DNA of 64,000 nucleotides, taken from the NCBI GenBank assembly GCA_963969365.1, contig OZ017753.1:930001-994000 (forward strand), written 5' to 3'. Positions within the stretch are counted from its first letter, which is position 1. Each line of letters begins with the position of its first letter. Source of the DNA: Asterochloris sp. CNOR1 (Eukaryota > Chlorophyta > Trebouxiophyceae > Trebouxiales > Trebouxiaceae). Below are positions 3,301 through 64,000 of this stretch, piece after piece. Made by a program: the position numbers and the translations under genes. Under the pieces are notes generated by a model. That model searched no databases, was not told where the DNA came from, and saw nothing but the letters and a program-made list of their open reading frames with translations.

Positions 3301-6300
3301 TCAAGCATGCACATTCTCAACGGCGTCCTTCATGGCCTTGGCCAGGTAGGGACAGGTCTTGGCTGACAGGCCAACCATGGAGATACGCCCATCAAAGGTC
3401 ATGTAGATGTGGTACTTGTCTGTCAGCAGCTGTACCTGCTCCTTGGTGAGGCCAGTGTAGGCAAACATCCTGCATGAAGGGCAGAGGGACTGTGGCTTGG
3501 ACTTGGCCTGGAGGCATGAAGGTGCATGCCACATGGCCCAGGCTGCACACTCATCCCTCAGCAGAAGCAGCTTGTGTGCCTTCTGTGCAGCCGCAGCACT
3601 CACCCGATCTGATCCTCGATGTGCTTCCAGGAGCCTGGAGCATTTATTTCCCGCAGGGAGTCGTGCAGCTTGGTCCGCATCGTGATGATGCGGTCAGCCA
3701 TGGCCTTCAGCTCAACCTGAACATAGCCAGCCAGCGGCTTCCATGTTGGTGCTACCAGTCACAGGCTGCATTAGCTTTCCAGCAGCCTTAGGGAACCCTG
3801 GAGTGAACGGCCAGAAGGTGGCATGCCAGAACGTCTCTCACCTTCCACTGACTGAATAGCTCTTTGTCAGACAGAATGGTGGTCACAATAGCTGAGCCAT
3901 GCTTGGGAGGGTTGCTGTACATGGGCCTGATCACCTGCAGCAAGCATGGCGATTGAAGGCCCAGTGCAGGCTAGCATTGGCACTGAGTGTAGGGCCAATG
4001 AAGGCAGCTGTGCAGCGGCATAATGTGGCGCCCTCGGTGAACATGCAGCTCAGTCTGGTCAGTAGAGGTGCTCAAGAGGGCAGGCCAAAATTGTTTCTGC
4101 TGGCAGCTGCAGCCATGGAGTTGATACACTCACTGATTTAAGTTGACTCTCGACCTTCCTGGCAACCTTAGGGTCTGATGTCACCACCGACAGGGCACCA
4201 ACACGTTCACCTGCAGGAGCCAGCAAGCAACGTCAGCACTTGCAAAAGCATTAGCTGCTCAACTGGTGTCTAGCAGCAGGGGAAGGCAGCAGAGAATTTA
4301 CCCACCATACAGCCCCATGTTCTTGGCATAGCTCTGCAGCACAGCACCAAAAGGTGAGACAGCTGCTGGGCCATGCAAAGGGTGCAACTATGGCAGCTGG
4401 TGGGGCAAAAGCGCCACTGCAAATCCTCAGAAGCGGCAGGTTGCAGGGCGGCAAGGGATGCATGATTTCCTCATGGCAATACCTGAGCCAGCAGCATTTC
4501 CACCCCTGCATCAGCAAACATCCTGATGGATTGGGCGTCCCTGTCCAAGTCTCCACTAGCAAAGCCCTGCAGCAGTGCAAGCATGTGAAGGAGCTTCATC
4601 TCAGATATTCAGTTAGCAGACAGGAAGGCTGCACTTTGTAAGTACAGATGCGTATGGGAGCATGAGCAGGTCCATTGGGTACAGCATGCACAGCAGCTGG
4701 ACGCAACGTCAGGACGCAGCGATGTGAAGAGATGAAGTACTGACAGACTGCAAGAGCCATGCCCAGATGTTGATGCACGTGAGTGGGCACCTGGTAAGCT
4801 GAGTCCAGGAACGGCAGCAGCCGCCGCTCTCTGACCACCTTTAGGATGCCCTGCCACTGCTCTGGGGTGGGGTCCACGCCTGTCTGCAGGGCAGCAGGGA
4901 GGCAATGAGCATCAGGTGCTGAATCCAAGGAATATGCATAATCGCTGGGCTTTGCTGAAATTGCAAGGTACAGGCAGTGCCTAGCACAGTCAACATTCTG
5001 CAGGGGATAGCGTGAGCATGCACACCTCTGCAGAGGCCTGATTTCTCACCGGATTGTGGGCGCAGGCATGCAGCAGGATGATGCTGCCACGGGGCGCCTG
5101 CCCCAAGTCCTCCAGCATGCCCTGCACCGCCATCCAGATGATCAGGTTTGCCATCCAGATGATCAGGTTTGGGCTTCCCTGCCCTCTTCACATATGCCAT
5201 GACAGGGCATGTCCAGCCAAAACGGTGGAGCTCTGCTGGCTGGACGATGGGGGAGGATCGCAAGCTCTCAAGCGCTGAGCTTCGAAAGAACTCACAGGTG
5301 CACCACCAGGTTGCTGCCTGTGCAACAAGGCCGCCCGCACCCTGTGCCCACCTTGTAGTCCAGCCCCACAGTCTTTGGGCTGAAGTAGCGGTACCGCCGG
5401 ACCTGAATGCCTGCATCAGCATGCACAGCGCTGAGCTGCAGTGTGACTTTGAGCTGTCCAGACAGCACTGCCACTGCGTGAGCTTGCTGGGCACCAGGTC
5501 TGTGCAGCAGGCTGGCAGCTGGCAGCTTTGAGACACTGCCACCCGGCTCTCAGCGTGCAGCAGCACTGGCATCTTTGTGCGCCTGCAGAGCCCGCTGCAG
5601 GCTGCCATTGCTCAGCAGCATCTGCCAGACTACCATAGTTTACACTCTGCAGCTCACCAGCAGAGCCCTGCAGAGTACCCTGCATATGCCTGGCTGCCAC
5701 CCTCAGCAACAGTCGCACCCTGCTGCCAGGCAGCACATGCCTGGGCATCGACAGCACCCACCTGGCTGCCAGCATGCTGCAGCATCAGCCACCCCTGCCA
5801 GTCTCGCAGCACATGCCCACGCACCTGCTAGAGGGAAGATCTTCAGGTGATTGGCCCAGGTGGGGTTGGGGATGTACACCAGATGCACTGGGTAGTGCAG
5901 TTTCAGGAACTCCGCTCCCACGCGCAGAGAGCCGGTGCCGGAGAGACACTGCATGGTGGCATTCCGCCCCTCCTTGAGGACCAAGGAGTCATCGCCAAAG
6001 GCCAGCCGAGCGCTCAGCTTGGCAAAGGCGGGCTCCCCAGCAATGCCCAGGTACTCCTGCAGGAGGTGGTGGGCTCTGTTAGCAGGGGCAGGTGACTTGA
6101 GCAGACTGAGGCCCGCATGAGGCTGCCTGTGGCGGGATGCTCAAGCACTCCTGCAGGCAGGCAGAGCCCCTGCAGGGGCAGGCTGAGCGATCAGGGCCCA
6201 GGCATGCATTGGAGACACGCTGAAGATGGCACAGCCAGCTGGCCGGCAATGCCCAGATGCTCCTGCACGAGCTGAGGTGTTTGCGGACATGCAGTGGGCA

Positions 6301-7468: not shown

Positions 7469-7635
7469 TGCTACAGGCAGCTGCTTAATCTATTGCAATG
7501 GTTGACCTATCTATCGTCCCATGTTTGTGATTGAGATCTTGCCAGCCCTTCCCAGCTCCAGCTTACACATGGGTGTATGATCACCTTGCAGGTGCTGGCA
7601 GGAACACCAATTGCTCATCAGCTTGAGCAGCATCA
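7469..7635. promoter_or_regulatory. Short divergent intergenic region, likely shared promoter
   Basis: These 167 bases separate the start codons of the minus-strand aminotransferase and the plus-strand hydroxylase-like gene. I see no clear core promoter element. Inference from layout only; an extra 5' exon of the right-hand gene may also lie here. Confidence 0.4.
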
Positions 7636-9025: not shown

Positions 9026-12000
9026 TTATGTTTGGAGGCTGGGGTTGGCCAGCTGCTTCTGGGCCTGTTCTTTTCTGGTAGACTCAAACTTATCATTGGC
9101 AGTATGCAGAGCCTGCAGCACTGTGGAGCCTGAGTGGGCAGGCAGTGGAATTACAGACAGCATGCAGGTCAGATCCAACCCGCATTGGCTCACGTTTTCG
9201 AGGGGCTTCAGCAGCTGCCGAATGCAAAATCGCTCTGTCCCTGTCGAGCTGTCAGACATTGCCATGATCCTGCAGAAATTGCTCACTGTGAGACCTTGAC
9301 TGTGCGACAACAGTGGGAATGAATGTCGCTGTGCCCTATCACTGCAGGAAGCCTAGGGCAAGTCTGTGCTATGAGAGCATTGCAACATCTCTGTGCAGAA
9401 TAGCCCATGCTCAATGGTAGCATGGCAGACCTGTCGTAGTGGCTGGCAAGTGCCCGGTCTAGCTTGGCTGCCTTGTCTTCACGCTGCTTGGATGTCCAGG
9501 GAAAGCTGGCCCAGAAGTGGCGGAGCATCTCATTGCCAGTCTGGCACACCCTGCGGCACTCCTGCACAAAGATGAACAGAAAAATTTCGCAGACGGCAGC
9601 AGCGCTGCCAAAACGACAGACAGTGGCTGCAGGGCAAGGCCATACAGTGCTGGACACAGAAGCACACACAGAAAGGCTGCAGGCCATGCAGCCTGCATGT
9701 CAAATGGTAAAATTGCACAGTAAGCTCAATGGGCCTGTTGGAGCCAGGCCAATGCACAGGATGGGTTTAGGCACCATGAGGGAGCCTGCTCGCCACACAG
9801 CTCACCTCCTGAATCGGCGCAGCCAGGTCTGTGGCAGGATTGGTGCCCACAGTGAGGCCTGTCTCATCCAGGCCCATGGTGGTCTGCTCAGCATAGAGGT
9901 CCTGCATCACCTGCTAGCACGAAGATAGCAGATGAGATTCAACAAAAAGCTGACAGCTCAGAAGGTTGAATTAACAACAGTCATGCTGTGAGGTGGCCAT
10001 GCAACAAGCAGCAACAACATGGACACTGGATGTTTAGCGCAGGCTGCTGACCTGATAGGTGAGCTGAGGTGTCATGCCATGCTGCAGCTGCGCCAGATTG
10101 ATGCTGACCAGGGCCTGCTGCCAAAGCACAGCAGGAGGGGCTCCGTGTACCTGAGCTTGCTGACTGCCATCTGCCGCCACCTTGCCCTCAAAGAAACGGC
10201 GAGGGTCCTGCAGCCAAAGGCATAGGGAGCTGGAAGGGCACAAGGGCAGAGCAGAGGCTGCCAGACAGCCAGATTGCCTGCCCTCGCGGTCTTGGACGCA
10301 GCACCTGCCAATGTGATGGCCAGGCTACACATTCCGGAAGATGCACGTGACCTGTGCACAGGGTTGCAGCAGCGCTTATTGCTCAAGTCGTCTGTCTCAG
10401 ACACACCACACGCAGGTCTGACATGCGCAGCGCAAGTGCCCACCCCATGTGTGCTCAGTAAAGAGGTCTGGTATACCCCCCAGCGCAGCATTCAGGCGCA
10501 CCGCAGCTTTACGATGAGCTCGACCAATGGTGGCTGGCCCACCAAAGCACATCTGTCCAGTACCCCTGCTCATGGCATGTGCAGCCTACTTCAGTGCGGC
10601 TGCAGCACAGTTACTCCTGACAATGCTTGAGCCTTACACACAGCATGCCAAGGAGACAGCCCCAGAGCGCACCCTGATGTTGAGCTCCACAAACTGCTGG
10701 TGGTCCTCTGCCTGCAGGTCGCCCAGGGCGCCATCTGCCCTCATGCGGAATGCCCTTTGCTCCTCAGCAGTCAGGTGCTGATCAGTGTTGCCTCGCCCAT
10801 TCCTTTCAGCTGCAGCCTCGACCTGCACAGACCAAGGTGCAGTGGGGACTGTGTGTGGATCTCTGCTGACCAGTCTCAGCAGAGCCTTGAGCCTGTCGTG
10901 GCCGCTTGAGCGTGACAATGCGACACAATGGCCAGAGGAAAGAGATGCTACAAGCAAGGCACAGCATGCCAGACCGCCCATTCGACCCAAGATGGGCCTG
11001 CTTCGATCAGCAGGAAGTTGTAGCTAGCCTGGCCAATCCAGCATCCAGGCATGCTCTGCATGTGTATCTTCCCAAGGTCTGAGGATGCCACTAACCTGTT
11101 GTGCCTCCCACATGGCCTGTGCCAAGCCCTCAGTGTTGGCGCTGGTACCCACACTGATGGGCAGACCCTGCAGGACCACGTCCGCGTGGCGATTGAGCTC
11201 GCTAAGCAGGTGTTTCCCTACACCCTCCTGGACCACAGACGGGTCCACGTCCTGCAGAGTCAGCGCACAGGGTGGCTCCACTTTTGGGTGCTCAATTGCC
11301 ATGCAAGGCTGCAGGTACAGCCACATAAATGAGTGGATCACATTTGCTGCAGCAGCTGCAGGGGCTGCCCAGCTGGTCCAAATGACGCGGTCAATACCCA
11401 CAAAAGCGCAAGCAGCATTGCTACACAAGCATGTGCGTGCAGGCCTGGCGTGGTACTAGCTCAGCCTGCCGCATCTTATCCGGGCTGGCCATCTGGGTAC
11501 AGAGGAAGACACCCAACAAGATGTGAGTCACCTTGGCTGGGTCGTGCTCCAGGCCGAAGCCATGCGACCATCGGTCAAAGCTGTCAGCCGCCAGGTTGAC
11601 CGTGGGGTCCACCCGCCGCACTTTGTGGCGCTGCTGCAGCTCCTGCTCTGCAGCATCCCCTCTGTTCCTGAACAGCTCGTCTTCATCGGCCAGCTCCAGA
11701 GCAGCTGTCTTGTCACCTGCCTTGGCCTTGCGCCGTAAAGCCTGCAGGCAGGAAGGCAGTGTGAGGATCCTTGTGCAGTCGATTTGGGCAGCCACTTCCT
11801 TGCCTGCCTTGGCCTTATGCCGCACAGCCTGCACACGTCAAAACAGCTTGAGGACGTTCCTGCTGCAGACTTGGCAGTAAGTGGATGCCTGTCATAGCCT
11901 TGCCTGCAGAGCCTGCAGACATCAAGGCTATCCAGCTAATGCAAGAGCCTGACTCTTTCTGCTTGCTTCAGGCAGCCCCATCAAATGTGCAGCAGATTGC

Positions 12001-17183: not shown

Positions 17184-20100
17184 CTAGTTGCTGAACAAGC
17201 AGATGGTGCTGTCAGCTCCTGCGCTGAACACCCAGGGCTGAGTTGGGTGGAAGGTGCAGTCAAAGACGCCTTCCATTTTGTGAACTGCCTCATGGCCGTG
17301 CAGGATTTTCACGGGGACAATCAGAGGGTTGGTCATCAAGTCCTGCATGGCAAGGCACAGGGCTGTCCAGGCAGAACTTGGACAACATGTGCAGGCGCAA
17401 CACCTTGGAAGTCAAGCCCAGCGCCAGCTGCTGCAGCTGAGTGTACCATACCCCTATAGGGTTCCATGCACATGCCCATTGACGGGCAGCTGCTGCCTGT
17501 GACCCATGACTGCCGCGGCTGGGGGAGCATACCTGGTAGACCATGCCATGGAAGACCTGGATGGTGCCATCGTCTGAAGCAGAGGCAAACAGCGGGTAGC
17601 TCCTGTGAAAGGCAACAGCCCGCAGCGCAAGCTGATGGTACTTCAGCGCCTTGTAGGGCTTGGTGGACAGGTCCAGGTCATACCACAGCACCCTCCTGTC
17701 CTGCAGTCGGCAAAGTGAAAGTCCTTCAGCAGCTGCAGTGCATGTTGGGCTGCTGATTCAGGCTGAGTGTCTCGGTGGCAGTCATGCTGGCGTGCACCAC
17801 TTATAGACCAGCCACCAGGAAAGGTGGTGGACACGGAAGCTTGCCTCAAGCAGTATCCACAGACACTACCCAGGACAGGCAGCCTTGTCATTACTGCAAT
17901 TGTGCAGGTTCCATCAGGGCCGGTTTGCAGGCAGCTGGCCAGGATGTAGCAGCCGCTGGAAAGCACAGGCACGCTGGTAGTGCCTGAGGACCCCCCATAA
18001 GCTTTGTGATCAGCCAGCCTGAACAGACCCCGTCATGGGGCCAAGTAGACGGCGCATAAAGCAGCAGCCCGTGGTCCCAGTGTGGTTCGCTACCGGGCTG
18101 GCAGTGACCGAGACGCGCCCAAACTCCACTCACACAGCTAATGCTCGCCTCGGACAATCCAGGCTAGGACATGCTGAAGTCAATGTTCGGCCCCGGCCCG
18201 GTGCTCACCTCACAACCCACCAGCACATGGTCCCCGCTGGGGTGCACCGCCATGCTGGCAATGCCTGAGGCCCCCATAAGCTTCTTGGCCAGCTCCTGCT
18301 TGGCCAGATTGTAGATCCTGACGTGGTTCTGTGTCGCCACAAAGAGGAAGGGCTTGAGAGGGTGGAACAGGACGTGCACCACGCGGCCACGGTTCTTTCT
18401 GAAGGGATTCTGGCTGGAGCGCTTGGACAGCTGGTGCACCTGCACAGCCTGGGTGTTGCCTGCAGGCAGGAGAGCAGGCATGAGGGCAGATTCCTGGACT
18501 GGGGGCATGGACGCGCTGTCCAAGATCGATGAGTAAGGGGCTGTCTTGCGCCTGCAGGGAGAAAGCAGGTTCTGGCCAGAGTAGTTGAGCAGCTGGCGGA
18601 TCTGCCCTGCCTGATGTGGCCCCTAAGCAACGTTGTTGTAAAGACATGCAGGTACTGGCTGCTGCAGAACCTTGCTGCGGCTTGCAGGACATGCAGGGTG
18701 AGGCCTGCCATGTGCAAGCTTCAGCATGCAGGAGAGGAACGACGTGGCCAGTCACTGTAAGCTGGTGGGGGACCCAGTCAGCAGTGCGGTGAGGCGTTAT
18801 GCTTGTTGTGCTGCAAAAGCACAGCAGAGGGACAGTTGCTGAGGGCTGTGACACCTACAGAACAAAAGTGCAGCATCCAGGACAATGGCTGACAGTACTC
18901 TCGAGCACCCAAGACCCACCTGTTGGGGCAACAGAAGCAAAGTAATCCCCCCTGCTGTGCCACGCCACATGAGTGACGGGGTGCTGGTGCACAACCTCCA
19001 GGCCCTCCCCATTGGGGCGTTGCCTCCAGGCAGCCACAGCAGCGGTGCCGGCTGCAGCGGCTGTTGGCAGCTGCAGGGCTTCTGCTGTCGCAGCGCGCAC
19101 CTCCTCATTGCCCAAGCCTGCATTGCAGCTATGAAAATTGGCAGGCAACTTCTAGCTGTAAAGCAGGCATTGCGGCGCGGTGGCACTGTCCACGTGCAAG
19201 GGCTGCAGGCATGGGCACAGCACTGGGCCGAGGACGACTGCAAGTTTGGCACGGGATCCAGACACAAATTGCCCTGCCTTGCTCCCCAGCAGGTCCACAG
19301 CAGCAGGAAGGCAACAGGGCACACACCAAAACTCACACAGCCACGGCTTGAGGCTGGCCACGCTGTCTCCCCAGTACAGCGCACCAGCTGCAGGCCACAG
19401 CCCATCTGGTGCCTGCTCTGACTCCCGCTGCATTCCAGCCAGTGCTTTCAGCTGTCCAAGCCTCACCTGGGGAAAGGAGGACGACACTGCTGCCAACAAC
19501 GACCGCCAGCAGCTGTACCCCACTGCTGGGGCACCAGGCCACACTGTGCACGGGGGCCTCCAGGTCCCAGCTGCGCAGGCAGCGCCCGGTCCGCACCTCC
19601 CATAGGCGCAGCGTGCCATCGTCTGAGCCTGATGCGAGGTGCTGCCCTAAGGCATCTGGGGCCACGCTGCGCACCTGCAGGCGCCACACGGGACACCTGG
19701 GCAGCTGGAGGCTGCTGGAGGGTCCAAAGAAAGGCGGCAGGCATGCAGAGGGGTTCTTAGATCCATTGCTGATCTCAGCCACAGCAACAGTCACAAGTGC
19801 ATGGCAGGGGGCCACAACAGGCAGCTAAGAACAATTTGGGTAGAGCATCCAGCCACCCACAGCCCTGTCTGGCCACCATCCCTGCCTATGCAGCCCGGAT
19901 CTCCACAGCGGCTCTGGTAGCGCCCTACATCCCACAGCGAGACAGAACCCAGCAGTGCTGCTGACCACTGACCCTGCCTGAGTCAGCAGCTGCATTGTGG
20001 CTGGATTGGCTCAGCAGGCAGAGGCGATAGCAACACATCGTGCATGCACAACATGTCGTCTCTGCTCACCCTGCCTGTGTGGCCAATGTATCTGAGCAGC

Positions 20101-23982: not shown

Positions 23983-26900
23983 ATGCCTGCCATTGACAGG
24001 CATCAGCCTGACTGCCATTCCTGCCGCGAGGCCATGGCACAGCTCAGCAGCGCGCTCCTACCAACATCTGCTGCTGAGAACGGCAGCATGTCAGCAGCAG
24101 ACTTCAAGGCCAGCCTGTATGCCCAGCTGAAGACTGCAGGTGTCATGAATTCCATCAAGGTGAACGCTGACATTGTGTATGCCATCCATGTTGAACAGCA
24201 GCAGGCAAAGCTCTGCACATCCTCTTCCTTGCTGATTGAATTTCATATGGCCTCTCTCTCACACTTCTCCCCATGCTGGCATGGGCAGACCCAGCTGCGG
24301 GCACAGGTGTTGTCCAAGCTGCAGCATAATAGCCCTAGCGTGGCGCCACCAGAACCCGGGGCAGATGCCCTCTTCAAGCGGGCACTCAACAGCATCATTG
24401 CTGAGTACCTGTCGGCCTGCCACATGCATTACACCCTGTCAGTATTCCAGCCGGAGAGCGGGCTGAGTGGGACAGTGCACCTGTCTCATAGCGAGCTGGC
24501 TCGCGTGCTGGGGCTGAAGCCAGGGTCGCTGCTGCATTCTGCCCTGGCGCGGCGGGGCATGGCAGAGGGAGGTCACAGCAAAGGTGAACGAAAGGTTCAC
24601 ATGAGCTGCAACATGAGCCTGTCTCGACGTGTTGTGCCTCGTCAGCGGTGCTGCCTGTACACTCGGCCTGCGCCCGACGTGGCGATGGCCAGATCTGGTT
24701 GCATTTTGCTGTCTCAGACATGGTGCCTACACCAATGCAGGCTCACATTGATCTACACTGTTCAGGGGGCGCTGTGCATGCAGGTGCTGCCTGCTTTGGG
24801 CTGGCCCTGCTGGAGGCTGTGGAAGAGGTCAGTTCAGGGACAGGTTTAGTGCTAGATTTGGGCCCGGAGGACGAAGGCGAGCACCTGAGCCAGGTTTGTT
24901 GCACTTCTGCTGCCTGAAGGCTTTGCCATCAGCAAGTGACTTGACTGTGGACACCCTGCTAGCTCAAGGCCATGGGTGGGCTCCCAGCAAGTGTGATGGG
25001 AGAGACCATGGGGCACACCGCAGCCACCACGCTGGCCTTTCTCAGGAGCCTGAGGCTGGGTGGCCTGCAGGAGCAGCATGTGATGCAAGCCCTGCTCTTG
25101 ATTGCCCAAGTATGGTAAGCCTTTTCAATGGGCAGACTTTCAGAACATGTCCTGACAAGCTTGGTGGGCTGTAGGAGCAGCGGGTGATGCATGCCCAGCT
25201 GACAGCTGCCAGGCAGGAGGGCGAGGCGGTGCAGCGCAGGGTGGCTGCTGCAGAGCGCGCAGAGCTAGCTCAGCAGCATCACCAGGAGCTGCACGCAGTG
25301 CAGCAGTCGCATGAGCAGGTGCAGTTCAAGCACCTATAGGTCAGGCAGCCATCACATCAAGTCTGCAAACAGCTGTTGCATGCAGCACTGCCAGGCGGTG
25401 TAGAAGCTGCATCGTCAGGTGCAGCAGCCTTCAAACAGCTCTCCTCTGCACAAAAGTGGTGCCGTGATGCTTGGCATGCAGCTGATTATAAATCCCATTG
25501 CAGCCCTACACGCTGCTGCTTCCCCCACAGGATATGCGTAGGCTGCTTTATGTCTGTAAGGCTTTCGCTGCAGGCCATGTACATTTTGAGAAAGCAGCAG
25601 CATGAGCTGGAAGCAGAGTTGGAGCACCAGAGGGAGCGCCTGCACTTCGAGCGCCAGCACATGCAGGCAGCCCAAGAGGAGCAGCACAAGGGCCTCGCCA
25701 ATCAGCAGGTGCCCGCCCAGGGTGCTAATTGGGAGCCTGCGTGCAGCTGCCAATTTTGCCGCACCGTATTCATGGGAGCATGACCAGCCTGTCCTGCCGG
25801 TCAACTTGTGGGCCCGGTCGAGAAACCCATCCCATACAAATGGGTGGCACTAGGCCAAGTTGATGGAGGCTGGCGCAGTACCCAGGACTTCGTGTGGTTG
25901 CCGTGCGCACAACGTCTTCTGCCACTGCATTGAGTGTCTCTCACTAAGCGGAGTGCGCGAGCGCAATGCAGAGGGATCAGTCAGTGCCAGCCTGCTGCAG
26001 GAGCGCCTTCACGCCCAGCAGCTGGAGCTGCAGCAGCACTTGAGTGCAGCACAGCTGCGGGAGGCGCAGGCAGCCCGCAAGGTGGCTGAGGCCAGTGCCG
26101 AGCTGGCTGAGGCGCGGGTGACTGTACGGCATGAGGTTGAACAGGAGCTCTTCGTGCAAAAGGAGGCCGTGCGGCGGGACCGGCTGGCTCTGGAGTCTGA
26201 AAGGTGGGCCTTGTGGAGGGGCGGCCTGCCTGCCAAGGCTGTTGCTGGCATTGTGGCCAGTGTTGTGCAGCATGATTGAGGCTGCTGTATGCGTGTAGCC
26301 GCAGAAACTACCAGCTGTAGTCCCTTGCGACTGGTGACAGCTGTCAGCAGTGTCTGCCACGGGAAGGGAGTGGCTGCCCTCTTCTGAGGTGGGCAACCCA
26401 TGTGCAGGGTGCTTTTGTGCCGCCACATCTTGCAACATTGCCCGAGCAGCTCAAGTGCCTCCTGATACTGCACATACGTCAGAGACGCAGAATAGGACAT
26501 GGAGCAGCTTGGCAACCACCGCGCCAGCCCTATGCCGCAAGTTCCAGGGACTCGCTCAGGGGAGCTAGGCAGTTAGGACAGCTGTGCCCTGCCATCTGTT
26601 GCCACCCTTTGCCACCTGAGCATGGACTTCCGCAGGTCATTTGCACAGAAGGATGTGCCAAGGCAACTCGGCATATTAGCTTGCTGCAGGTCGCCGCGCC
26701 AAATGTATAGACCAGTCCCTTATCCCTGCAGGTCTCAGGTGCTGGAGCTGAGGAGCCAGGCGGCAGGGGACATCAGTGCCCTGCGCATTGCCCAGGAGCG
26801 CCTGCGAGCAGTGGAAGGCAGCCTGGCGGATGCCCAGCGACGGGGGCAGGCTCAGGCTGCCACCATTGAGACGCAGGGCCTGCAGATGGAGCAGTTGCGG

Positions 26901-41237: not shown

Positions 41238-41391
41238 GTCACCCTGGCATCAAAGTCCTCAAGAGCGCAACCACAGGTGCGCTGTAGGGCAGGCAGTTTC
41301 AGTGACAGCTGCTGTCCACCAGTGCAATTCATGCAGACTGCAGCCCACCTGGCATCAAAGTCCTCAGGGCGCGCCTGCAGGTCGCGCGGCA
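41238..41391 (-). repeat. Duplicated exon end EDFDAR (dynamin-like gene)
   Basis: The exon end at about 41344-41391 (ARPEDFDA, then gtgggc) has a copy at about 41238-41283 (ALEDFDA, then gggtga), 105 bases further on in the intron. The copy has lost the GT donor at the matching place. Confidence 0.87.
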
Positions 41392-49383: not shown

Positions 49384-52300
49384 TCACTGCCATCCAAGGT
49401 ATGTGTCAAGCAGGTACACCGTCAGCAGGGAGGCTGGCCAGAGGGCGAGGGCAGGGGCAGCAACATAGGCCGGAAACTGGTGCTTCTTCCATGATAGCAG
49501 ACCAAACGCTATGGTTGGCAACACGATAACAGTAACCTCGCTGCTGTACACCCAGTCCAGCTGGTTGCGCCACACCGAATACAGCAGCAGCCCCAGGACA
49601 AGGGAGTTGTTCACAGTGACTGCGCCTGTAATCTTCAGCAACACAGAAACACCTCGGTCCTCAGCATGCTGTTCTGAGGCAAATGCAGCAGGGTGGCTCA
49701 AAGAATCTGAGTATCTGCTGGAAGTCAGGTCAGCAGAACAGTCACACATCACCGCACACAGGTGCAGTTTGGAGACTTGCCTGACTGAATGTGAGGCTGA
49801 TATTTCGTCTGGTTTTCCCCGCCGCAAAGGACAGGGACGAAACCATCTCTGATGCATTGGAAGCAAGGGGGGCTAGAGCAAAAGCCACAAAGAAGGGAGC
49901 GATGTTCAAAGCCTTGGAAAGGCTGTTGAGGGCATCCACTAGGGGGTCACTGAAGATAGCACAGATTGCAACACCTGCAGGGGAGGAAAGCACCAATACG
50001 GGCTGCAGCAGCTTGTTGCCGCTGACATCCTGAAAGGTGCACATGGGCAGCACAATGGAGTGCCAGCAACGCTTTTCAAGGCTAAGATCAGCTAGCACAC
50101 AAGCATTGCGTTGCAAGCGTTGAGCTGTAGGGCAGTGCAATGTCCTGTGGTCTGGATGAAGAGCCCACAATATCAGGCTTCTGAAAATGACTGATGCAGC
50201 CAGCTTGCCTGCTGCAAGTTTTCCAATGGAGCGAATCCATATCTGGGTTTCGCTGTATTCCTCATCATCATCTGAGTCTTCATCTTCTTCATCTTCTTCT
50301 TGCCTGCACATGGCACTGCAAGGATCAGCTGCAGCAATGGTCTCTGCCCGGCATTGGCGAGAGTGGCCAGCCACGTGCACTATCTGGTCCGGGCAACAAA
50401 CACGTGCGATCAGAAAGTGATAGGCCAGTGCCATAAAGCTGAGCTTAGAAATTGATAGGCCAGTGCCATGAAGCTGCAGTGCTTGCCTGGACGGCTTTGG
50501 CATCGGTATGTCGTAGAGAAGCCCGGCAGATGTGCCAGCAGCTGAGTGACCTTGCCGCTTCAAAAGCTTCTGCTTCTCACCGACCCACCTGCAGCAATAA
50601 AATTATTTTCCATGGGACCCTTGGGATGCAGGCTGATGCAAAGTGTGAGCCAATGCAACTGCAGGTTGATGCAGCTTGGGCTTGCATTGAATAGTGCAGG
50701 CTTCCAGCGATGCCTGTGGCATAAAGAGCAAAACAGTGTGGGCATTGAGCACCAGGTGCATGCGCTTGGGAATGCTAACTTCTGGTCCGTTTCCGATTCA
50801 AGCGAATTGCCAAAAGCACATGCAGGGTGACAAATGTAGCTTGCACTGGGCCGTAGTCAAACACACAGGGAGACGGGCAAAGCGATGACGCAGTCTGCAA
50901 CCTGGTGAGCGTATGACTAAACTCCTCCTCGCTCACAACGTCATCTCTGCTTTGGTCAAATTCCTGCACCAGTCAGCAGATGTATGTCGGCCTTGTGTTG
51001 GCTGGCTGGCACCCATTGCAATTCTTCGGTTCCTCTGCTTGGCCCCAGTGTGCTCGTCTTTACGCCTAGGCAGGACAGTAAGATGCCAGCTAGCCCACCT
51101 TAGAAGACAGCCCACCTCAGAAAGCAAATCGTCGCCCACAGATGTCATGGACTGATCAGCAACATGATTCCATGCACTGCAAACTACAAGGCCATGGCCA
51201 CCATTGTTAAGTAGGCCTTGCACCCTGTTGCTGACTGCTGTGTGTTGGCTATCAGAGTGTAGACATTGAGAGAGGACTGAGGGCAAGGTTTCCCACAGAA
51301 GGCCAGCAGTCATGCTGTGGCCCACCTTCATCCAGTAGGCCATGTCTGTTTCACTGTCTGCCGCATTCTCGCTGGTAAGCGCCAGCCCCAGAAGCAGGCC
51401 AGCAAGCTCCTTGCTGCTGATGACTCCATCGCCGTCCGCATCGAAGTTGGTGAACAGGGAGTGGACCGCTTCCTCGTTCAGCCGCCCCTGCCGCATAAGG
51501 GATCCATAGGGCTCTGACTGCCGCGCCATGGCGCTGACAGCCTGGGAGCGCAGCCTGAAGCAGGGCAAATTGTTGCTCGCAAGGACTCTCCTCACCTGAC
51601 AGGCCTGCTGAGCATGCTCCCTAAACTTGCGCAAGCACAGCAGCTAAGGCAGCTGCGCCCCATCGCATCAAGGGCTCGGGACCACAGCGTGCAGGAGAGG
51701 AGAGTAGGATGCATCAAGCAGGTGCAGCAAGACTCCAGGCACCCATGGCCACGCAACCGAAGCTTGCACAGGCAGGTTTGCTGCGGAAGCCATGCAGCAG
51801 TAGTACACTGCTGAGAGCAACGCCTGCAGTGGAGTAGCTCCTAGCCTGTGTGGCCAGTGACCAGGCCAGACCTAGCAAGTATGCTTTCAGGGCTCAGGTG
51901 CTGCAGCTGCCAGACACAAGGGCTGCAGCCCCAGGGTGCCACCCGGGACAGCTTCAGTGGGATTCGCTGCCTGGTGCTTGTGCGGCAGCAGACATGTGCA
52001 GACCCAGGCTCATCTGGTCACCTGCGTGAGCTGCCCCAGTAGGGGGCTGGGCAGCAATGCATGGCACCAGATGCCCTGTGAGCAGATCAGGATCTCCACC
52101 TGCACGGCCCCTACTTCTGGATGTCTGTCTGTAAATCAGACTTGAGCAAAAGCAAATTCTCAAGACAGACCCATACATTGCAACGCAGCTGGGCCTCGAC
52201 CGCCCCAAGCCCGTCTGTGCTCACCACCATGCCAATACTAAGCCTACCCCAGTTGCCACATGCCCTGGCAGATCCCCGGCATGCATCCCAAGCCCTCACT

Positions 52301-54799
52301 TCCACTGCCCACCTGTGCCGCCGTGCCTTCTCCATACGCTTCTTTTGCATCTCAGGGTACAGCACCTGGGCCACGCAGTAGGCCACCAGGGTGACTTCAC
52401 AGACAGCGCACCCCAGCAGGGCGGCCTGGGGGTCTTCAATGTCCCCCAGGAAGGCAGGCACCTGCAGGGCAGGGGAGCTGAGTGTGTGAGCGCTTGGCTG
52501 ACCGGAGGTGCACAGGATTGTCCCACTTCCAAGGGAGGCAGAAACCCGGCAGGGTCGGGGGCCGCTGAGTGTGTGAGTCCTTTGTGTAGAGACAGAGGTA
52601 CTTGCTGGGAGATCCCCAGTGTCCATCATGGCAGGTATCTGCAGGGCAGCTTCACCAGGGGGTAAACAACACAAACTCTCCAGTGCATTTGACAGGCTGC
52701 TGAGGGTTCCAGTGAGGCAGTTGAGTCAGTGCACGGGGAGCACTGCCGAGACACTTCATGGTTCTACTGCCCAGCAGGGGCTGGCTGTAGAGCTGCAACC
52801 GCCGCCAGCAACATAAGCACCTGCAGGGCACCGGGGTGTGCGTCAACGAAAAGCAGCTCAGCCTACTCGAGCATGGGTCTTGAAGAGGTGGAGGAATTAT
52901 GTTGCCATCAAAGGCAAGGCAGCTCCTCGCAAGCTTACCCACCTTGCTTTCAGAAAGGGCCATTGAGGATCCTTGACTTGTTGCTGGTGCGACGCTTTAG
53001 GATGCGATGCTGCAAGTTGTGGATGTCAAGACTGACCACTAACGCACAGTCAGAGACGGAGGGCAAGGGCAGGTGCTGCCAGAAGATTCAAGATGACACC
53101 TTTCCCTGCAGGGAGACTCAGAATCCAAAGGGCCGCCGCACACTGTGGCTGCGTCCCTTGTGCAGGCTAAGGAACAGAGGCTTGATGGATGGCAGAGGCT
53201 TGATGGATGGCAGCCTGAGCTCACAATGACGCTGGCAGGGAGAGCCTTCTCACAGTGAGAGGCACACCTGGACAAAGCCATAAAAGAGTGCTGTCAGGGC
53301 CATCAGCAGGGCACCCTGGGACGTGCCGTTTTCCAGGGTCACTCCAGTCGAAAACCAGTCCCCCCGCCTCGTCAGGGTCTTGTTTCTGGCCCTTCCCTGG
53401 TCATCAAAGTCGCAGCGCCCCAGCAGGATGGAGCCTCCCCAACCAAGGCTAAGCAGCAACACGTTGCTGCCTGCAATACAAGGGGCATGACTATGGGCAT
53501 GCCAGGCACTGCTTGGTTGGCAGATGGAGTCCTGGCAAGCCAGCATGCCACTACAACAGGCGAGCAGGGCACATGAAGGCGCACTGACTGTGTTCTGTAA
53601 AACGCTGGCAGCAGGTGTTTGTCTGCTCGACTCTGTCAGGGCATCTAGGCGACAGGCCAAGCTGACCGACGCTGGCAGGCAAAGGACGCCTGCGCTGTGC
53701 TGTGCATTGTTTAGCAGCCTGCAGCACACCAGACCTGCCAGCGCGCCAATGCCCACAGCCACCTCCTCCTGAGCTGCCTCCCGGCTGGAGGCAAAGGCTG
53801 ACACCCCAACAATGAGGGCGTCAGGCAGGCCACCTAGCAGAGGCAGCACCAGCCCTGCAGCAACAAGAGCTTCTGCTGGAGTTGGGCATTGCCCCGGGCG
53901 CCCAGCAGAGGCAGGACAAGCCCTGCAGCAATGGTGCACCTTGTTGGGCCTGAGCAAGCTTCTCTGCATCGCGCTGCTTCACAGCAGGGCAGGTGCATCA
54001 GTGGCAATGCTGCATAAACAGCAACAGCAGCAGGGCCCCTTGCCGGGCCTCAGCAAGCTTCGCCGCCTGCAGCTGGTCTGCGGTATGCCAGGCAACAATG
54101 CAAAGTCACTGCCAGGTGTCTATGCGACCAAGATGCCAGATGTGCTGCATGCCTTTCGACTCGAGTGCAGCGACACAGCCTGCTGTGCTGCAGGCAGCCT
54201 GCTGTGCTGCCTACCCCCAATAAGGCCAGGATTGTCCAGGACTTCTAGCAGGCCCTCGCTGCCATCAGACAGCAGCTTGGCCCCTTGAAGCAGCAGGTAG
54301 CCATAGGTAATGGTCTCCAGTGCGGCCCCAGACAGACTGGTTGTGCTGCAGGGCACACAGTGCTGCAATCTCTGCAGCTGCTCTGCTGCATTCCCTGACC
54401 CACTTGGATCTGCTGTGACATAAACACCATCAAATTCTGTCTAAAAGGCTAACGGCGTCAGACAAGTCCACCAGCAAGAGTAAGCAGCAGCATTTACACT
54501 CACTGCCTGGCCTGCCATCAGGCAAGAGTGCTGCAGCATAGAAATCCCAACTATGCAAAAGACAGATTCATAACATCACCAGCAGAACCAGTGGGCAGCA
54601 GCCCTGCAGGACTGCACCTGACATCGAATAGGTCGCCCAGGACTCGTGCTGGCGACACCAACAGCGCAGTGCCCAGCAGGAAAGCTGCTGCCACTGCCCA
54701 TGGCCTGATGCGGCTCTGCAGGCTTTTGGACTCCTCCCCTGCCTGGGTCTGGACAGGCAGGGGCTGCAGCACCAGCCTGCCGTCCTTGAGCACTGCCAT
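49384..54799 (-). CDS. NCL-type EF-hand Na+/Ca2+ exchanger-like membrane protein
   Basis: Cation/Ca2+ exchanger of the plant/algal NCL group, with two alpha-repeat halves and EF-hands between. The likely first exon (ATG 54799) carries a signal-anchor (PWAVAAAFLLGTALLVSP) and joins in phase zero to an exon reading TEFDGVYVTADPSG, then CVPCSTTSLSG. Then come YGYLLLQGAKLLSDGSEGLL near 54300, alpha-1 GLVLPLLGGLPDALIVG near 53850, and NVLLLSLGWGGSILLG near 53440. EF-hand 1 is FDADGDGVISSKEL near 51430 and EF-hand 2 is FDQSRDDVVSEEEF near 50950. An acidic Asp/Glu run is near 50290, alpha-2 is FVAFALAPLASNASEMVSS near 49850, and the last transmembrane exon ends LLDTYLGWQ. Probable site is vacuole or plasma membrane. 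The EF-hands suggest Ca2+ gating. The first exon also resembles the MinC last exon next door, so the true start needs transcript data. Confidence 0.86.
50277..50308 (-). repeat. Trinucleotide-like tract coding for an acidic run
   Basis: Plus-strand repeats of tcttcatct/tcttcttc type encode EEDEEDEDSDDDEE in the exchanger's loop between the EF-hands and alpha-2. Length variation is likely between strains. Confidence 0.8.
50418..50478. repeat. 26-base near-tandem duplication in the exchanger gene
   Basis: The unit at 50418-50443 recurs at 50453-50478 (35 bases apart) with about three mismatches. It lies in an intron. Confidence 0.9.
53831..54068 (-). repeat. Nested partial duplications at the alpha-1 exon (exchanger gene)
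   Basis: The alpha-1 exon start (53831-53864, AGLVLPLLGG) has a copy at 53898-53932 that still reads AGLVLPLLGA. A second pair (53939-53969 and 54038-54068) shares a different unit (gcctnagcaagctt). All extra copies lie in the upstream intron. Confidence 0.82.
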
Positions 54800-55043
54800 C
54801 TGGGCTGTGCCGGCTGACTGCGCACTGCTATTGAGCTCCAGGCCTGCAGCAGGGCTTGCTCATGAGGACAGGCTGCAAACGGGCAGCACCGGCCTCAAGC
54901 ATCAGCCTGCCACCTGGGCTGTGCCGGGCGCCAGCATGCCGCTGTTGCATGCCTCATTTGCAACAGGACACACGTGTATCAACTGCCAGGCATTGCAACA
55001 TCAGCCTGCCATTCATGAGCACTGCCATTTGGGCTGTGGCGAG
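54771..55043 (-). repeat. Three copies of a MinC-tail-like exon
   Basis: Copies at 55000-55043, 54901-54928 (shortened in the middle) and 54771-54815. The outer copies read AQMAVLMNGRLMLQ and AQMAVLKDGRLVLQP in the same sense. The first ends the MinC-like frame; the last sits in the exon taken as the start of the exchanger. Confidence 0.88.
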
Positions 55044-59297: not shown

Positions 59298-59484
59298 ATG
59301 CCTTCACGATGCCCTGTATATTGCTGCAGCTCTAAAAACACCCCTCTGGCTCTCTGCCAATGGAAGCGGAATGGGTTCAGCTGATGACCTTGCTCTTGGC
59401 TGGAAATCTGGGAAGGCTTCTAGGTCCTGCCATCGCCTGGGTTCAGGGAAGGCTCTATCAAGTGCAGCAGCAGCATTGAAGTCA

Positions 59485-62400
59485 TCAAACAGGGAGGTCA
59501 ATGTCACTGAACATGTCATGACGCTTACGGCGTCGCTTCTGCTTGCTTCGGGTGTACAGCTTTTTACTGCTGCTGAGAAGCAGGCTGCCGATGGCAGTTG
59601 CAGGCACCTCTGCAGGAGGGCCCATCGCTTCCCGCAAAAGAGACGCCTGCTCTTCAGCGCTGGCTGCCTGCACCTGCAGGCATACTCAAGCAGGGTGACA
59701 TTGTGGCACAAGACCTGCTGGGTCTGGCATGTTGCTGTTGGGCTCCAATACCTGCTTTGAGGTCTGAAGCCAAAAGCCAAGTTGGGCGGGGCGTCATCAT
59801 CATCAGAACAGCCTGTCAGACCCCTCACCTCAGCCGCCTGTCACTAGACGCTATGAGGCAATATGTCTGGGACTCATACCAGTGTTCTGGTCGAGCCCCT
59901 CCCCTCACCTCAGCAACCTGCTGCAGGCGCCTTGTCAATGGGCGGGGCGTGCAGTCCATGTACAGATCATCCCGTCACCTTGGGAGCTTGCTGTTAGCGC
60001 TTCTGCCAGCAGAGTAACGTTCAGCGCAACCACACTTGTGAGTGTGTCTGACCCCCTGTTCCTCACCTCAGCAGCCTGCTGCTGGCGCCTGGCCCGTGAT
60101 GCCTCCATCTGGGCCCTCTCCAGCAGTGACTGCAGCTCCATCCGGGTGGTCAGCAGGGCCTCTCTCTCGCTGCGTACTGCTGACAGCTGCACCTGAGCCT
60201 GCACGTCAGGAGCCATGTTGTGGAGCGCAGAGCAAGCACATCTCTAGCCTGCACAAGGACAGGTAAAATTCATGACAGTGTAGCTCCAGCCTGGCTACGT
60301 GCAGACCTGTCTTCCTCTTGCTGCGCCTTGCTGACAGCGGTGCCTGGGCCTCTACTCAGTGAACTACTCAGTGATTGTCTTGCTTGACCGGGCCTCAGTC
60401 AGCCTGCTGGCAGCCAGGTCCAGGCTGTGGCAGAGGGTGAAGGACGCTGCTCAACAATGCTCTGTCATAATGGAGATGCCATGAAAGCATGTGAGAGGTT
60501 GACCTCGCTGTGCAGAAAGACTGATGGTTCTGCAGCATAATGCTGAGTTGGGCTCCAGACCCCTGGACAATCCCTTGTAGGGGCCCTGATTAGGCTGCGG
60601 CACACACCCTCAAACATGCACAGGCAGCAACCTTGCTTTTGACATTGTTTTTGCATTCGCCCACTCAGAGAGCCCGAGCAATACCTGGGCCAAGCCATGC
60701 TGGGCATCATCAGCGGTCAGCTCTGCCATCTGAGCTGCCTCCTGGGCTGCCCGGGCCTCAGCTGCCAGGCGGTCCTGGTCCTGGGCTGCCCGTTGCAGCT
60801 GCTGACGCAGGTCTGCCACAGCTGCCTCGCTGACTGCCAGGTCCCTGCAGATTGGGGTGGTGAGGCATGGGCTCCTGGTTCCTGTCAGGCATTGTCAGCA
60901 TTGCTGGGCGCACACCTGGGAAGCATGCACAGCCGAGCGGCATCTGCTGTGCTGACAGTCAGCACTCTGGGTTGGCAGCTTGCTTCTGCCTTTGCAAACA
61001 TAGACTGCTCCAGCACATACAACAGACCTTTCCAGGGCCTGCGTCCTGACTCCAGCTGAGCTCGCAGCCTCCTCCTCAAGCAGCGCCCTGCATGCAGAGG
61101 GCCAAACACAGTTCCTGATGTTCCAACAGGCACCCACAGATGTAGCAGAGCACAGTCTCCCTTGTCACAAGGCCAACGCCGGTCACAGGAAGCAGCTTGT
61201 GATTCTGCCAGCAGACCAGGCAAGTTGCTCTGCAAAAGCAGGTGGTTGATCCACAGTGAGGACGCCTGGCATCTGAGTCCACATCGGTGTTTGCTGCAGC
61301 TGCAACAGCAGCTGCGTGCTCTGAGTCTCTTTGACCCGCCGTCGACTGTCACATGTGCAAAGACGCAGTAGGCTGCTGGCGCCCGCGCTGCATGCATGGG
61401 CGCCATCAGGCACCTGCTGTGGGTCTGCGGTTGCGGGTGCAGGTGGCAGACTCAGATGTGAAGCAGGCTGCTGCATGGAAGCACTAGGGTCAGCAGTGGA
61501 TGCCCCTGAACCTGCTGGCGTCTGCAGCTGCCCCTGCCCGCCACCTTCCAGCTGGCAAAGATCATGCACCTGCTGTGGACACCCTGGTCCTGCTGCTGCC
61601 CCTGGCGCAGCTGCTGCTGCAGGGCGTCCGCCTGCCCCTCCGCCCGCTCCAGGCGCCTTCGCAGATCGTCGCCCTCGCTGCGCAGGGCTGCAGAACCCTC
61701 AAGGGCGTCTGCGCAGCGCCGCCGCAGCTCCACAATGGTCGCCTGAATGGGGCAACTTAGCATGGAGTTCATGTCTGTATTAGTGCCTGTGGGTTCCCTT
61801 GCGTTTGGTGGCATGTGGTTGCTATGCTTGAGGGCAGACGGGCAGGTAGGGTGGGGAGCGCACATGGTGCAGCAAAGTGGAATTCATCCATGTTTGGCAT
61901 TGATGATGCGGGAATCAGGGTGCTGCCCAGCTGTGGAGCTGCTCGCGACCAGACCAGAACAAGTACTTCAGGCAGCCTGAATGGCGCCTGCACTCTGCTG
62001 CAACCAGCTGGTGCCATGGCCTCTCAGCAAACATCAGTATTCTGCGGGGCCACACCTGCATGTGCTGCTGCTGCTGGTCCTGGCGCCGCCCTGCCTGCTC
62101 AGCAGCCAGCTGAGCAGCCTGCAGGCGCTCCACAGCAGCAGCCCTGGCCGCCTCCGCAGCGGCCACCTGCACAGGCAGCAACCCCTCATCGGCTTCACTG
62201 CGAGCTTGAGTCAGCAAATTCCCACAGTTTTCTGGCAGCGTTAAACAGAAAGGTGTTTTGCCTCCAGCCAGTGTAGCACCGCATTGCTTCCATAATGGTG
62301 CAAAGCTGCACTTTTACTAGCCTTATCGAAATGGCTGATAAACTCTGAGTGACAGCTACTGATCTCAGCTTGGCCTGCCAACCCCCCTGCCTTGCATCCA

Positions 62401-64000
62401 CAGCTTTGCTTGAAAATTCCTCATTGACTCACCTGGTCGACTGCCTTCTGGGCAACTGTGAGCGAGGCCAGATGGGCCTCTGTGCGAGCCGTGACCACCT
62501 CTGGGGACCCATAGTGCTGCCGCAGTGCATCCAGCTCATGCTGCAGCGTCTTGCAAGCGGCAGCGCCCTTATCCAGACTGGCCTGCAGATCCTCAGCCTG
62601 CATGGCCAGCAGCACTCATCACGAAGGGCACCGCCGCTGTGGAGCGTCCATGCTGGAGTGTTCTGCAGATTGCAGCAGCCCTGTCCTGACTGGCTTGCAG
62701 GTTTCCAGCCTGCAAGGGCGCTACCACTGTATCCTTGTAGAAACAACCTGTAGTATGCACTGCTACTGATCTGCCAGCTGCACGTGTCCAGCAGTCAGCT
62801 CATGAACAGTGTATTGAAGCAGAGTGCTGCAATCTCAATGTACCGCAGCGCTCCACAACATAGCGAGCACAGGGGCACCAACATTTGTCCTGTGAGCAGG
62901 CAGCACAGCTTTTCGTGTGTCTGATTGCCCCACCACAAAGCAGCATGGGTACAGCTTGCAGCGGGCAGCACCTGTGCCCGCCATGAGGCCGCCTCCCGCT
63001 GGGCTTCCAGCTGTGCCTGCTGGGCATGAGTAACCAGCTCGTCAGCTGCCACCTGCGCCTCCCGAATCTGGGCCTGATGTCCCTTGGCGGCATCCACAGC
63101 AGCTGCCTGGCTGTCCAGGCGCGCCTGCAAGTCCAGTCTTACAGGTTGTGAGGGGCTCTGACTGCAGCTGTGCTCAAGTGCTTGGCTGCTGAGGCTCTGA
63201 GCACTGCTCTATGATGTCTGCAAGGCTGCATGACTGCACACTGCATGGGGCGGATTGCTTGATGCATGTGAAGGACTTGAATTGCACCTCATCTCTGCTT
63301 TCAAGCCCATGACTGCATCTGCACCCACCTGCAGCTGGTGCACAGCTGCCTCCAGATCTGCATCGTGGGCCACCAGGGTGTCCCTGGCATGGGCAGCCTC
63401 CTCAGCTGCCCCTGCTGCCTCTCTCAAGCACTGGTACACCTGCACGCCACCAATGGCTGCTCAACATATCTGCAGTTGCCCTGCTGAAATTCCCTGGAAA
63501 AGTATGGGCCCACCAGTTCTTGGGGCCTGAGAGTGAGGTTGCTCAGCCAGCTGCTCTGCTGTGCTACCAGGCATTGCCCACTAGGGGTGCGAAAAAGGCC
63601 GGTTATTAGCCTGGCAGAGCGCTTGACAGATACCAGAGCTCTGCCAAGTTAGTGCCGAGACACACTACACGTTCCACCTATGGAGCGACGCTGCAGGGCA
63701 TCATCCAGCAGGGCAATCTGCCTGGGGTTTTTCTGCCGCAAACAGCAGACCACTCGCCTGCTCGTGCCGCCGGTCAGCATGCAGCAGGGCAGCCTGACTG
63801 GCCTGCAAGGCCTCCTGCAGATCCTTGGCCTCTGCTGTGACAGCTTCAGCTGCAGCGCTGGCCTCCTGCTGTGCACGCTGAGCATTAGTCAGCTGTGCAC
63901 GGCATCTGTCCAGCTCTGCCTGCTGGCTGCCGTGCTCATGCTGCAACCTGCTGTGAGCGTCCTGCATGCAGGGAAATGCAGTCACTGCGCAATGCTTGCT
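59485..64000 (-). CDS. Unidentified long coiled-coil protein (5' end outside window)
   Basis: A series of minus-strand exons, all Ala/Gln/Glu/Arg-rich heptad sequence. In order: LQHEHGSQQAELDRCRAQL (63940), EAAGAAEEAAHARDTLVAHD (63410), LDSQAAAVDAAKGHQAQIRE (63110), EDLQASLDKGAAACKTLQHE (62600), AAAEAARAAAVERLQAAQLA (62150), ELRRRCADALEGSAALRSEG (61730), ADLRQQLQRAAQDQDRLAAE (60800), and LSAVRSEREALLTTRMELQS (60180). Then come a short acidic exon (CSDDDDAPPNLAFGF, 59800) and a last exon ending KQKRRRKRHDMFSDIDLPV at 59485. I recognise no family. The Lys/Arg cluster near the end could be a nuclear signal. Such proteins are often centrosomal, Golgi-tether or nuclear-scaffold, but nothing here decides. 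It converges on SelU with a 187-base gap. Confidence 0.7.
59821..60100 (-). repeat. Three copies of an exon end and donor (coiled-coil gene)
   Basis: Copies at 60055-60100, 59901-59945 and 59821-59848 read ARRQQQAAE, TRRLQQVAE and a shorter form, each followed by gtgagg. The first is the exon end; the others lie further on in the intron and keep intact donors. Confidence 0.87.
62538..62718 (-). repeat. Duplicated 70-base exon segment (coiled-coil gene)
   Basis: The exon start at 62538-62608 (LQASLDKGAAACKTLQ) has a copy at 62649-62718, 111 bases upstream in gene sense, now in the intron. They align along the whole length with scattered mismatches. Confidence 0.88.

What the first reader, a model, noticed from the sequence alone, without database searches (positions are those of the whole stretch)
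5130..62718. Pervasive tandem duplication of exon-intron borders across unrelated genes
At least 14 places in eight genes show a 25-70 base exon edge copied nearby, about 35-280 bases away, with one copy in the exon and the other decaying in the adjacent intron. Many copies retain a splice site (gtgag donor or cag acceptor). Identity ranges from perfect (5130-5171) to heavily worn, so the process looks continuous. Tandem duplication of exonic sequence containing an AG/GT site is an established proposed route to new introns. Here it may also supply alternative donors, acceptors and mini-exons. I know of no description of such density in one 64 kb algal segment, but I cannot search.
Basis: partly seen in the sequence, partly recalled or inferred. 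Interest (0 to 1): 0.85.

Follow-up and report, generated by a model that had tools for sequence, protein, structure and literature searches.

The report
Old tandem duplications litter algal introns
Short stretches of this lichen alga's DNA were copied close by across the sampled genome, mostly long ago; copies that crossed an exon edge stay readable because the gene keeps the exon side intact, so they look like traces of intron growth rather than of a special machine at exon borders.

Summary
Local direct repeats (offset 15-400 bases) number 25 in the window at score 17 or more, against 0 at nine distant offsets and 0 in 12 block shuffles. It is not special to the window: 18 samples of 10 kb, one per chromosome, give about 30 per 64 kb. 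The alga is an Asterochloris. Inverted copies show no clear excess. Offsets have a mode at 65-139 bases. In 304 kb, 57 of 105 pairs with offset 60 or more join an exon or exon edge to a non-coding copy, 53 of them inside a predicted intron.

Random tandem duplication, with coding insertions rejected and copies aged to divergence 0.35-0.65, reproduces exon share, scores and identity together. With uniform ages an edge excess of 1.0-1.4 fold remains, depending on the gene model. The non-coding copies look dead as a class, and 0 of 53 host introns have the length expected of a duplication-made intron: existing introns grew. The 'perfect' example, 5129-5171, lies inside an intron. 'Continuous' is contradicted: young copies are scarce. 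That scarcity and the unit length are unexplained.

The parts
5129..5171 (-). Perfect 21-base tandem repeat inside an intron of the aspartate aminotransferase gene, just upstream of the acceptor of exon 5026-5121; not an exon edge
   Evidence: Tandem Repeats Finder; exon table and sequence; exon continuity in homologue 1ama
6037..6274 (-). Acceptor edge of exon 5825-6056 (copy 6037-6068) with a relic in the upstream intron (6243-6274), offset 206
   Evidence: EYLGIAG stretch aligned to 1ama
11716..11833 (-). Exon-exon pair 11716-11746 / 11803-11833, offset 87
17953..18275 (-). BOP1 exon stretch 18234-18275 with intronic relic 17953-17994, offset 281
   Evidence: human BOP1 alignment; Astpho2 protein P0001
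21106..21274 (-). BOP1 donor edge 21242-21274 with relic 21106-21138 that keeps a CAGGTGAGC donor-like site, offset 136
25055..25200 (+). Acceptor edge copy 25159-25200 with upstream relic 25055-25096, offset 104
26863..27124 (+). Three decayed copies, period about 94, in a gene with coiled-coil-like protein (my reading of the translation, no family search); exon 27074-27100 is doubtful
27640..27772 (+). Donor edge 27640-27671 with downstream relic 27741-27772, offset 101
31776..32019 (+). Two exon ends alike, 31776-31806 / 31989-32019, offset 213 (exon-exon class)
36275..36546 (-). Acceptor edge 36275-36336 with upstream relic 36485-36546, offset 210
36610..36674 (-). 33-base tandem repeat in an intron (short-offset class)
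38836..38945 (-). Exon stretch 38926-38945 with intronic relic 38836-38855, offset 90
40314..40426 (-). Donor edge 40389-40426 with relic 40314-40351 that keeps AAGGTGAGC, offset 75
41243..41366 (-). Donor edge 41348-41366 with relic 41243-41261, offset 105, donor lost in the relic
50412..50476 (-). 35-base tandem repeat within an exon (short-offset class)
53175..53213 (-). 18-base exact tandem repeat in an intron (short-offset class)
53833..53931 (-). Acceptor edge 53833-53863 with upstream relic 53901-53931 that keeps CTGCAGGG, offset 68
53936..54061 (-). Intron-intron pair, offset 99
54753..55041 (-). Exon-exon duplication (offset 229) with a third partial copy at 54907-54927, in the model that begins with a MinC C-terminal domain
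59821..60090 (-). Three copies of a donor-edge motif (offsets about 80 and 158); only the 59903/60061 pair reaches score 17, and it is classed 'mix'
60164..60351 (-). Acceptor edge 60164-60200 with upstream relic 60315-60351, offset 151
62537..62717 (-). Acceptor edge 62537-62605 with upstream relic 62649-62717 that keeps TTGCAGGC, offset 112

Best explanation
These are relics of short direct tandem duplications that struck the Asterochloris genome without regard to gene structure, with a most common unit of about 65-139 bases. A duplication wholly in coding sequence is usually rejected. One that crosses a splice junction is tolerated, because splicing can keep using the exon-proximal site, so the extra copy is discarded with the intron and the intron becomes longer. 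The coding copy then stays under selection while the intronic copy decays, so exon-edge pairs stay recognisable after intron-intron and intergenic pairs have faded; this concentrates visible pairs at exon borders. Most visible pairs are old (modelled neutral divergence about 0.35-0.65). Shown: local direct copies across the sampled genome; the offset spectrum; neutral behaviour of the non-coding copies as a class; fit of the neutral model at old ages. Inferred: that the exon-proximal site is the one used in each case, and that the original units were strictly head to tail.
For: Excess at short offsets only, in window and samples. No clear excess of inverted local repeats in 264 kb: 4 against 3 in control at score 15, 3 against 1 at 17. 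The best-preserved copies abut head to tail over nearly the whole unit: L008 117 columns for offset 119, L005 104 for 106, L013 68 for 68. Edge and non-edge pairs share an offset distribution (KS p = 0.27). One age range, divergence 0.35-0.65 with exon rate 0.1-0.2 of neutral, reproduces exon share (modelled 0.58-0.80, observed 0.63), mean score (22-26, observed 23.8), share scoring 40 or more (0.01-0.08, observed 0.077) and identity (modelled 0.83-0.84; observed 0.838 over 91 pairs). Stops and codon positions in the non-coding copies are as expected for dead sequence. Host intron minus offset has median 273 bases, so the intron was there before. Human and Astpho2 BOP1 carry the two exon copies once and lack the intronic ones.
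Against: With uniform ages the model underpredicts exon-involving pairs: 43 of 64 and 42 of 65 independent families against 0.476-0.514 expected with two gene models (p 0.002-0.035), though 33 of 62 against 0.505-0.526 with the third. The fit therefore needs old ages, and why young copies are scarce is not explained. Aligned length is often well below the offset (median 0.67 of it for offsets 60-139), and identity just beyond the match falls to background quickly (0.32-0.36, then 0.27; simulated old tandem copies give about 0.33 then 0.30), which short non-tandem copies would also give. Gene models are unverified except in a few genes.
Confidence: 0.78

Rival explanations
1. Intron creation by tandem duplication of an exonic AG/GT site (Rogers model): the intron is itself the duplicated unit, so its length equals the offset and both ends mirror the flanking exons.
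For: Established elsewhere (PMC3443670, passages). Splice-like sites lie at many copies. L013 545-748 looked like a case, with three 68-base copies bounded by CAG/GT.
Against: 0 of 53 hosted pairs have an intron length within 5 bases of the offset; 45 of 53 exceed it by 60 or more; the nearest are -8, 11 and 16. At L013 the stretch after the array encodes VCGGNAG, also present in P0121 and P0134, and the stretch before it is absent from P0134; P0121 has some residues there, perhaps from an annotated intron. So the array most likely sits in an older intron as a triplicated acceptor region.
Confidence: 0.05
2. Functional duplicated exon edges: intronic copies serve as alternative donors, acceptors or mutually exclusive exons.
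For: 31 of 43 splice dinucleotides are still present in the non-coding copy. In-frame stops are somewhat fewer than expected (6 against 10.4), within the null range.
Against: Identity of about 0.84 per base would leave roughly 0.7 of dinucleotides intact by chance. Codon-position mismatches show no second coding constraint. BOP1 in Astpho2 contains neither intronic copy.
Confidence: 0.08
3. A splice-site-directed duplication mechanism (for example transcription- or splicing-linked breaks) favours exon borders.
For: A 1.26 to 1.41-fold excess of exon-involving families over the uniform-age model with two of three gene models.
Against: No excess with the third gene model (1.01-1.05) and none needed once ages are set to match scores and identity. 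Intergenic and intronic pairs have a similar offset spectrum.
Confidence: 0.07
4. Dispersed elements (Introners or other transposons) rather than local duplication.
For: Introners occur in green algae (PMC9860276, passages only).
Against: Of 105 repeat segments searched against 304 kb, only 2 distant hits at E 1e-4; copies are tens to over 100 bases, not 3-9 base target duplications.
Confidence: 0.02

Closest known systems
Tandem genomic duplication crossing one intron-exon boundary (potato RdRp gene, PMC4974935; passages seen)
   Same: A tandem duplication that spans one intron-exon border and copies its splice signals; the same gene also has an 83-base tandem duplication inside an intron.
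   Different: In potato a new intron resulted. Here, as a class, existing introns became longer, and the events are dense, spread over the sampled genome and old.
Internal gene duplication (Gao and Lynch 2009; cited inside, not read)
   Same: Local duplication within genes across eukaryotes.
   Different: As I recall it, that work concerns duplicated exons and intron creation; here the visible copies are mainly dead relics.
Microhomology-mediated or nick-pair tandem duplication (recalled; no paper read)
   Same: Produces direct head-to-tail duplications of tens to a few hundred bases.
   Different: Breakpoint microhomology could not be read from such worn copies.
Short slippage repeats (microsatellite or minisatellite-like)
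   Same: Some offsets under 36 bases here, such as 5129-5171 and 53175-53213, are exact.
   Different: The 65-139 base class is separated by a trough at 36-64 and is more diverged.

Membership tests
Rogers-type intron gain by AG/GT tandem duplication | Intron length equals the duplication offset | tested here: not met
   0 of 53 hosted pairs within 5 bases
Rogers-type intron gain by AG/GT tandem duplication | Relative lacks the intron | not testable with these tools
Tandem genomic duplication crossing an intron-exon boundary | Direct local copies spanning a splice junction | tested here: met
   57 of 105 pairs at offset 60 or more join exon or edge to non-coding; 43 splice sites lie inside the exon copies
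Tandem genomic duplication crossing an intron-exon boundary | Copies head to tail | tested here: inconclusive
   True for the best-preserved copies; older copies align over only part of the offset
Tandem genomic duplication crossing an intron-exon boundary | Breakpoint microhomology | not tested
   Most copies too diverged; the sequences of seven arrays were only printed
Introner | Many similar copies at unrelated loci | tested here: not met
   2 distant hits for 105 segments, within 304 kb only
Mutually exclusive or alternative exons | Coding constraint on both copies | tested here: not met
   Stops within the null range and codon-position pattern as for a dead copy
Mutually exclusive or alternative exons | Splice junction reads at both copies | not testable with these tools
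   No RNA-seq
Templated insertion by end joining (both orientations, recalled) | Inverted as well as direct local copies | tested here: not met
   Inverted local repeats 4 against 3 in control at score 15, 3 against 1 at 17

The most novel reading that the evidence does not exclude
A past wave of tandem duplication with a characteristic 65-139 base unit, now largely silent, hit the Asterochloris lineage and built a sizeable part of its intronic and intergenic DNA (roughly a tenth or more, my extrapolation from the detection rates), leaving decayed copies of exon edges in about 9% of introns (43 of 497). The unit size and the scarcity of young copies would point to a repair or replication process that has since changed; copies born already diverged by an error-prone polymerase are not excluded.
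Probability: 0.3. Interest if true: 0.55.

Novelty: new member of a known kind. Interest (0 to 1): 0.38.

Why it matters
It gives a quantitative null for claims that exon borders are duplication hotspots: random tandem duplication, selection on the coding copy and old age are enough. It also offers a genome in which intron growth by tandem duplication can be counted, and in which cryptic splice sites are supplied in bulk. The scarcity of young copies and the preferred unit length make a testable case that the rate of a basic mutation type changed within one algal lineage.

Tried and rejected
Gene finding: the first self-trained model collapsed to one gene per sequence and the second still merged genes; hyperparameters were changed and three settings were compared. 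Searches carried a strand-mask bug that dropped plus-strand pairs and miscounted intergenic ones; replace them, and the first apparent perfect agreement (49% observed against 41-50% modelled) is withdrawn. Searches used the same faulty list for their observed sets; their simulated figures stand, and the observed figures were redone.

Rows dropped before counts: exon-exon, mixed and other pairs (14 of 105) were left out of the exon-share test; linked pairs were collapsed from 105 to 78 families. Leaving out L013, whose exon label is wrong, gives 54 of 81 exon-involving, a little further from the uniform-age model.

Intron creation at L013 was considered and rejected after the protein alignment. 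Inverted copies and dispersed elements were looked for and not found in excess. An E. coli 50-kb stretch gave 0 pairs at score 17 and 2 at 15; it is a weak control because it has no introns. Density in other algae was not measured. Rfam gave no hit in the window at gathering thresholds. Papers: searches (listings seen); passages only of PMC6652019, PMC3443670, PMC4974935 and PMC9860276. I saw no report of this pattern for Asterochloris in those listings, but only the listed papers were seen and the library lacks most subscription journals.
Full report
WHAT IS THERE. I compared the window with itself at every offset from 15 to 400 bases, scoring ungapped matches +1/-1.5. At score 17 or more there are 25 pairs. 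Nine sets of distant offsets give 0, and 12 shuffles that keep dinucleotides within 500-base blocks give 0. Eighteen 10-kb stretches of the same genome (positions 500001-510000 of contigs C1-C18) give 84 pairs in 180 kb, about 30 per 64 kb, against 6 in their own distant-offset control, 5 of these in one stretch, L013. The pattern is real and widespread, so the window is typical. An intron-free control, 50 kb of E. coli, has 0. Inverted local repeats show no clear excess: in 264 kb 4 against 3 at score 15 and 3 against 1 at 17.

WHOSE GENOME. The genome is 56.4 Mb in 21 contigs. The BOP1 protein predicted at 17184-22632 finds as best hit a JGI Astpho2 protein that matches at all but two of 589 aligned residues, apart from a stretch my model wrongly included. 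The published Asterochloris glomerata genome is 56 Mb, with on average 9 introns per gene and GC of 56-62% in 98% of it (PMC6652019, passages). The alga is therefore an Asterochloris, probably this species or one very near.

GENE MODELS. I had no annotation or RNA-seq, so I trained a small gene finder on the window and the samples. It converged on a CAG|GTGAGC-like donor and a CTGCAG|G acceptor. Across 304 kb it gives 497 introns, median 242 bases. Aspartate aminotransferase and BOP1 were checked against solved structures: exon copies at 6037-6068, 18234-18275 and 21242-21274 encode residues present once in the homologues. Known errors: an insertion in BOP1, a false exon at L013, and a 40-exon model at 35169-56107 that carries MinC, Na/Ca exchanger and dynamin-type domains and is probably several genes.

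CLASSES OF PAIRS. In 304 kb there are 119 pairs, 105 with offset 60 or more. Of the 105, 57 join a copy in an exon or across its edge to a non-coding copy (53 of these inside a predicted intron), 19 are intron-intron, 15 intergenic, 10 exon-exon, and 4 mixed or other. In the window, 15 of all 25 are exon/intron.

OFFSETS AND AGE. At score 17, 57 of 127 pairs with offset 15-800 lie at 65-139; 13 are under 36 and only 2 at 36-64. At score 15, offsets 36-64 hold 6 pairs and 65-94 hold 35. Simulated detection, about 0.4-0.6 for units of 40-60 against 0.7-0.8 for 70-100 at divergence 0.3, does not explain that step; at score 13 the step is smaller (22 against 54). The pairs at offset 60 or more are old: aligned identity exceeds 0.9 clearly in 4 of 105, all from the L013 array, and 58 of 105 lie at 0.70-0.80. 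The best-preserved copies abut head to tail.

ARE EXON EDGES TARGETED? I simulated duplications at random, rejecting those that insert coding sequence, letting non-coding copies decay and exon copies decay more slowly. With uniform ages the model predicts 0.476-0.526 exon-involving pairs. Independent families show 43 of 64, 42 of 65 and 33 of 62 with three gene models, a ratio of 1.01 to 1.41. With divergence set to 0.35-0.65 and exon rates 0.1-0.2 of neutral, the same model gives exon share 0.58-0.80 (observed 57 of 91, 0.63), mean score 22-26 (observed 23.8) and share scoring 40 or more 0.01-0.08 (observed 7 of 91), with identity 0.83-0.84 (observed 0.838). No edge targeting is needed, though the age range was chosen to fit.

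ARE THE NON-CODING COPIES ALIVE? Their in-frame codons hold 6 stops in 605, against 10.4 (5-16.5) if mismatches fell at random. 43% of mismatches lie at codon position 3, which my own estimate puts near 43% for a dead copy against a constrained exon. Splice dinucleotides survive in 31 of 43, near the 0.7 expected from identity alone. As a class they are relics; single ones may still be used.

INTRON GAIN? A duplication-made intron should be as long as the offset. Of 53 hosted pairs, 0 are within 5 bases and 8 fall below offset plus 60, the nearest being -8, 11 and 16. The host intron exceeds the offset by a median of 273 bases. The tempting case at L013, three 68-base copies bounded by CAG/GT, is most likely an acceptor region triplicated inside an older intron: the residues after it recur in an Astpho2 paralogue and in Tetrabaena, and the residues before it are absent in Tetrabaena. 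So the duplications lengthened introns. Some 43 of 497 introns host a visible relic.

WHAT REMAINS STRANGE. A constant birth rate should leave many near-identical copies. The model gives about 0.85 of detected pairs scoring 40 or more for divergence under 0.2, while 7 of 91 observed pairs do. For offsets 60-139 the count is 6 of 52, against 0.48 expected with uniform ages (P about 3e-8) or 0.36 with very frequent indels (P about 6e-5) (expectation; linked pairs not collapsed). Loss of young copies by recombination cannot cause this at constant birth, since survivors can only thin out with age (argument, not a test). Either the rate fell, or copies are born diverged. The preferred unit length also has no explanation here. 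Identity beyond the match drops fast, so copies shorter than the offset remain possible.

KNOWN OR NEW. A tandem duplication crossing one intron-exon boundary is described in a potato gene (PMC4974935, passages), and tandem duplication is a listed mechanism of intron gain (PMC3443670, passages). The kind is known. What may be new is the density, the age peak and the unit length in this alga; whether other algae share them was not measured.

Noticed in passing
L013 545-748 (genome C12 about 500.5 kb): Three 68-base tandem copies at up to 99% identity, each ending in TTGCAG|GT, so one intron seems to have three candidate acceptors in a row, in a gene whose relatives carry PF01637 (ATPase) domains.
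   Followed up: yes
54753-55041: In the model that begins with a MinC C-terminal domain an exon stretch is duplicated in frame at offset 229, with a third partial copy between.
   Followed up: partly
36610-36674, 53175-53213, 50412-50476: Short tandem repeats with offsets of 33, 18 and 35 bases, at 88-100% identity: a separate, younger-looking class.
   Followed up: partly
35169-56107: The single 40-exon model holds MinC, Na/Ca exchanger and dynamin-type domains and an EF-hand-like stretch (recalled, not in the search result); it probably merges several genes.
   Followed up: no
G000 contig C20 (110,056 bases): Length close to the Asterochloris mitochondrial genome as printed in PMC6652019 (given as 11,0932); likely the mitochondrion.
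   Followed up: no
L013 whole: GC 0.538 and 5 of the 6 distant-offset repeat pairs at score 17 seen in 18 samples; possibly a repeat-rich or gene-family region.
   Followed up: no
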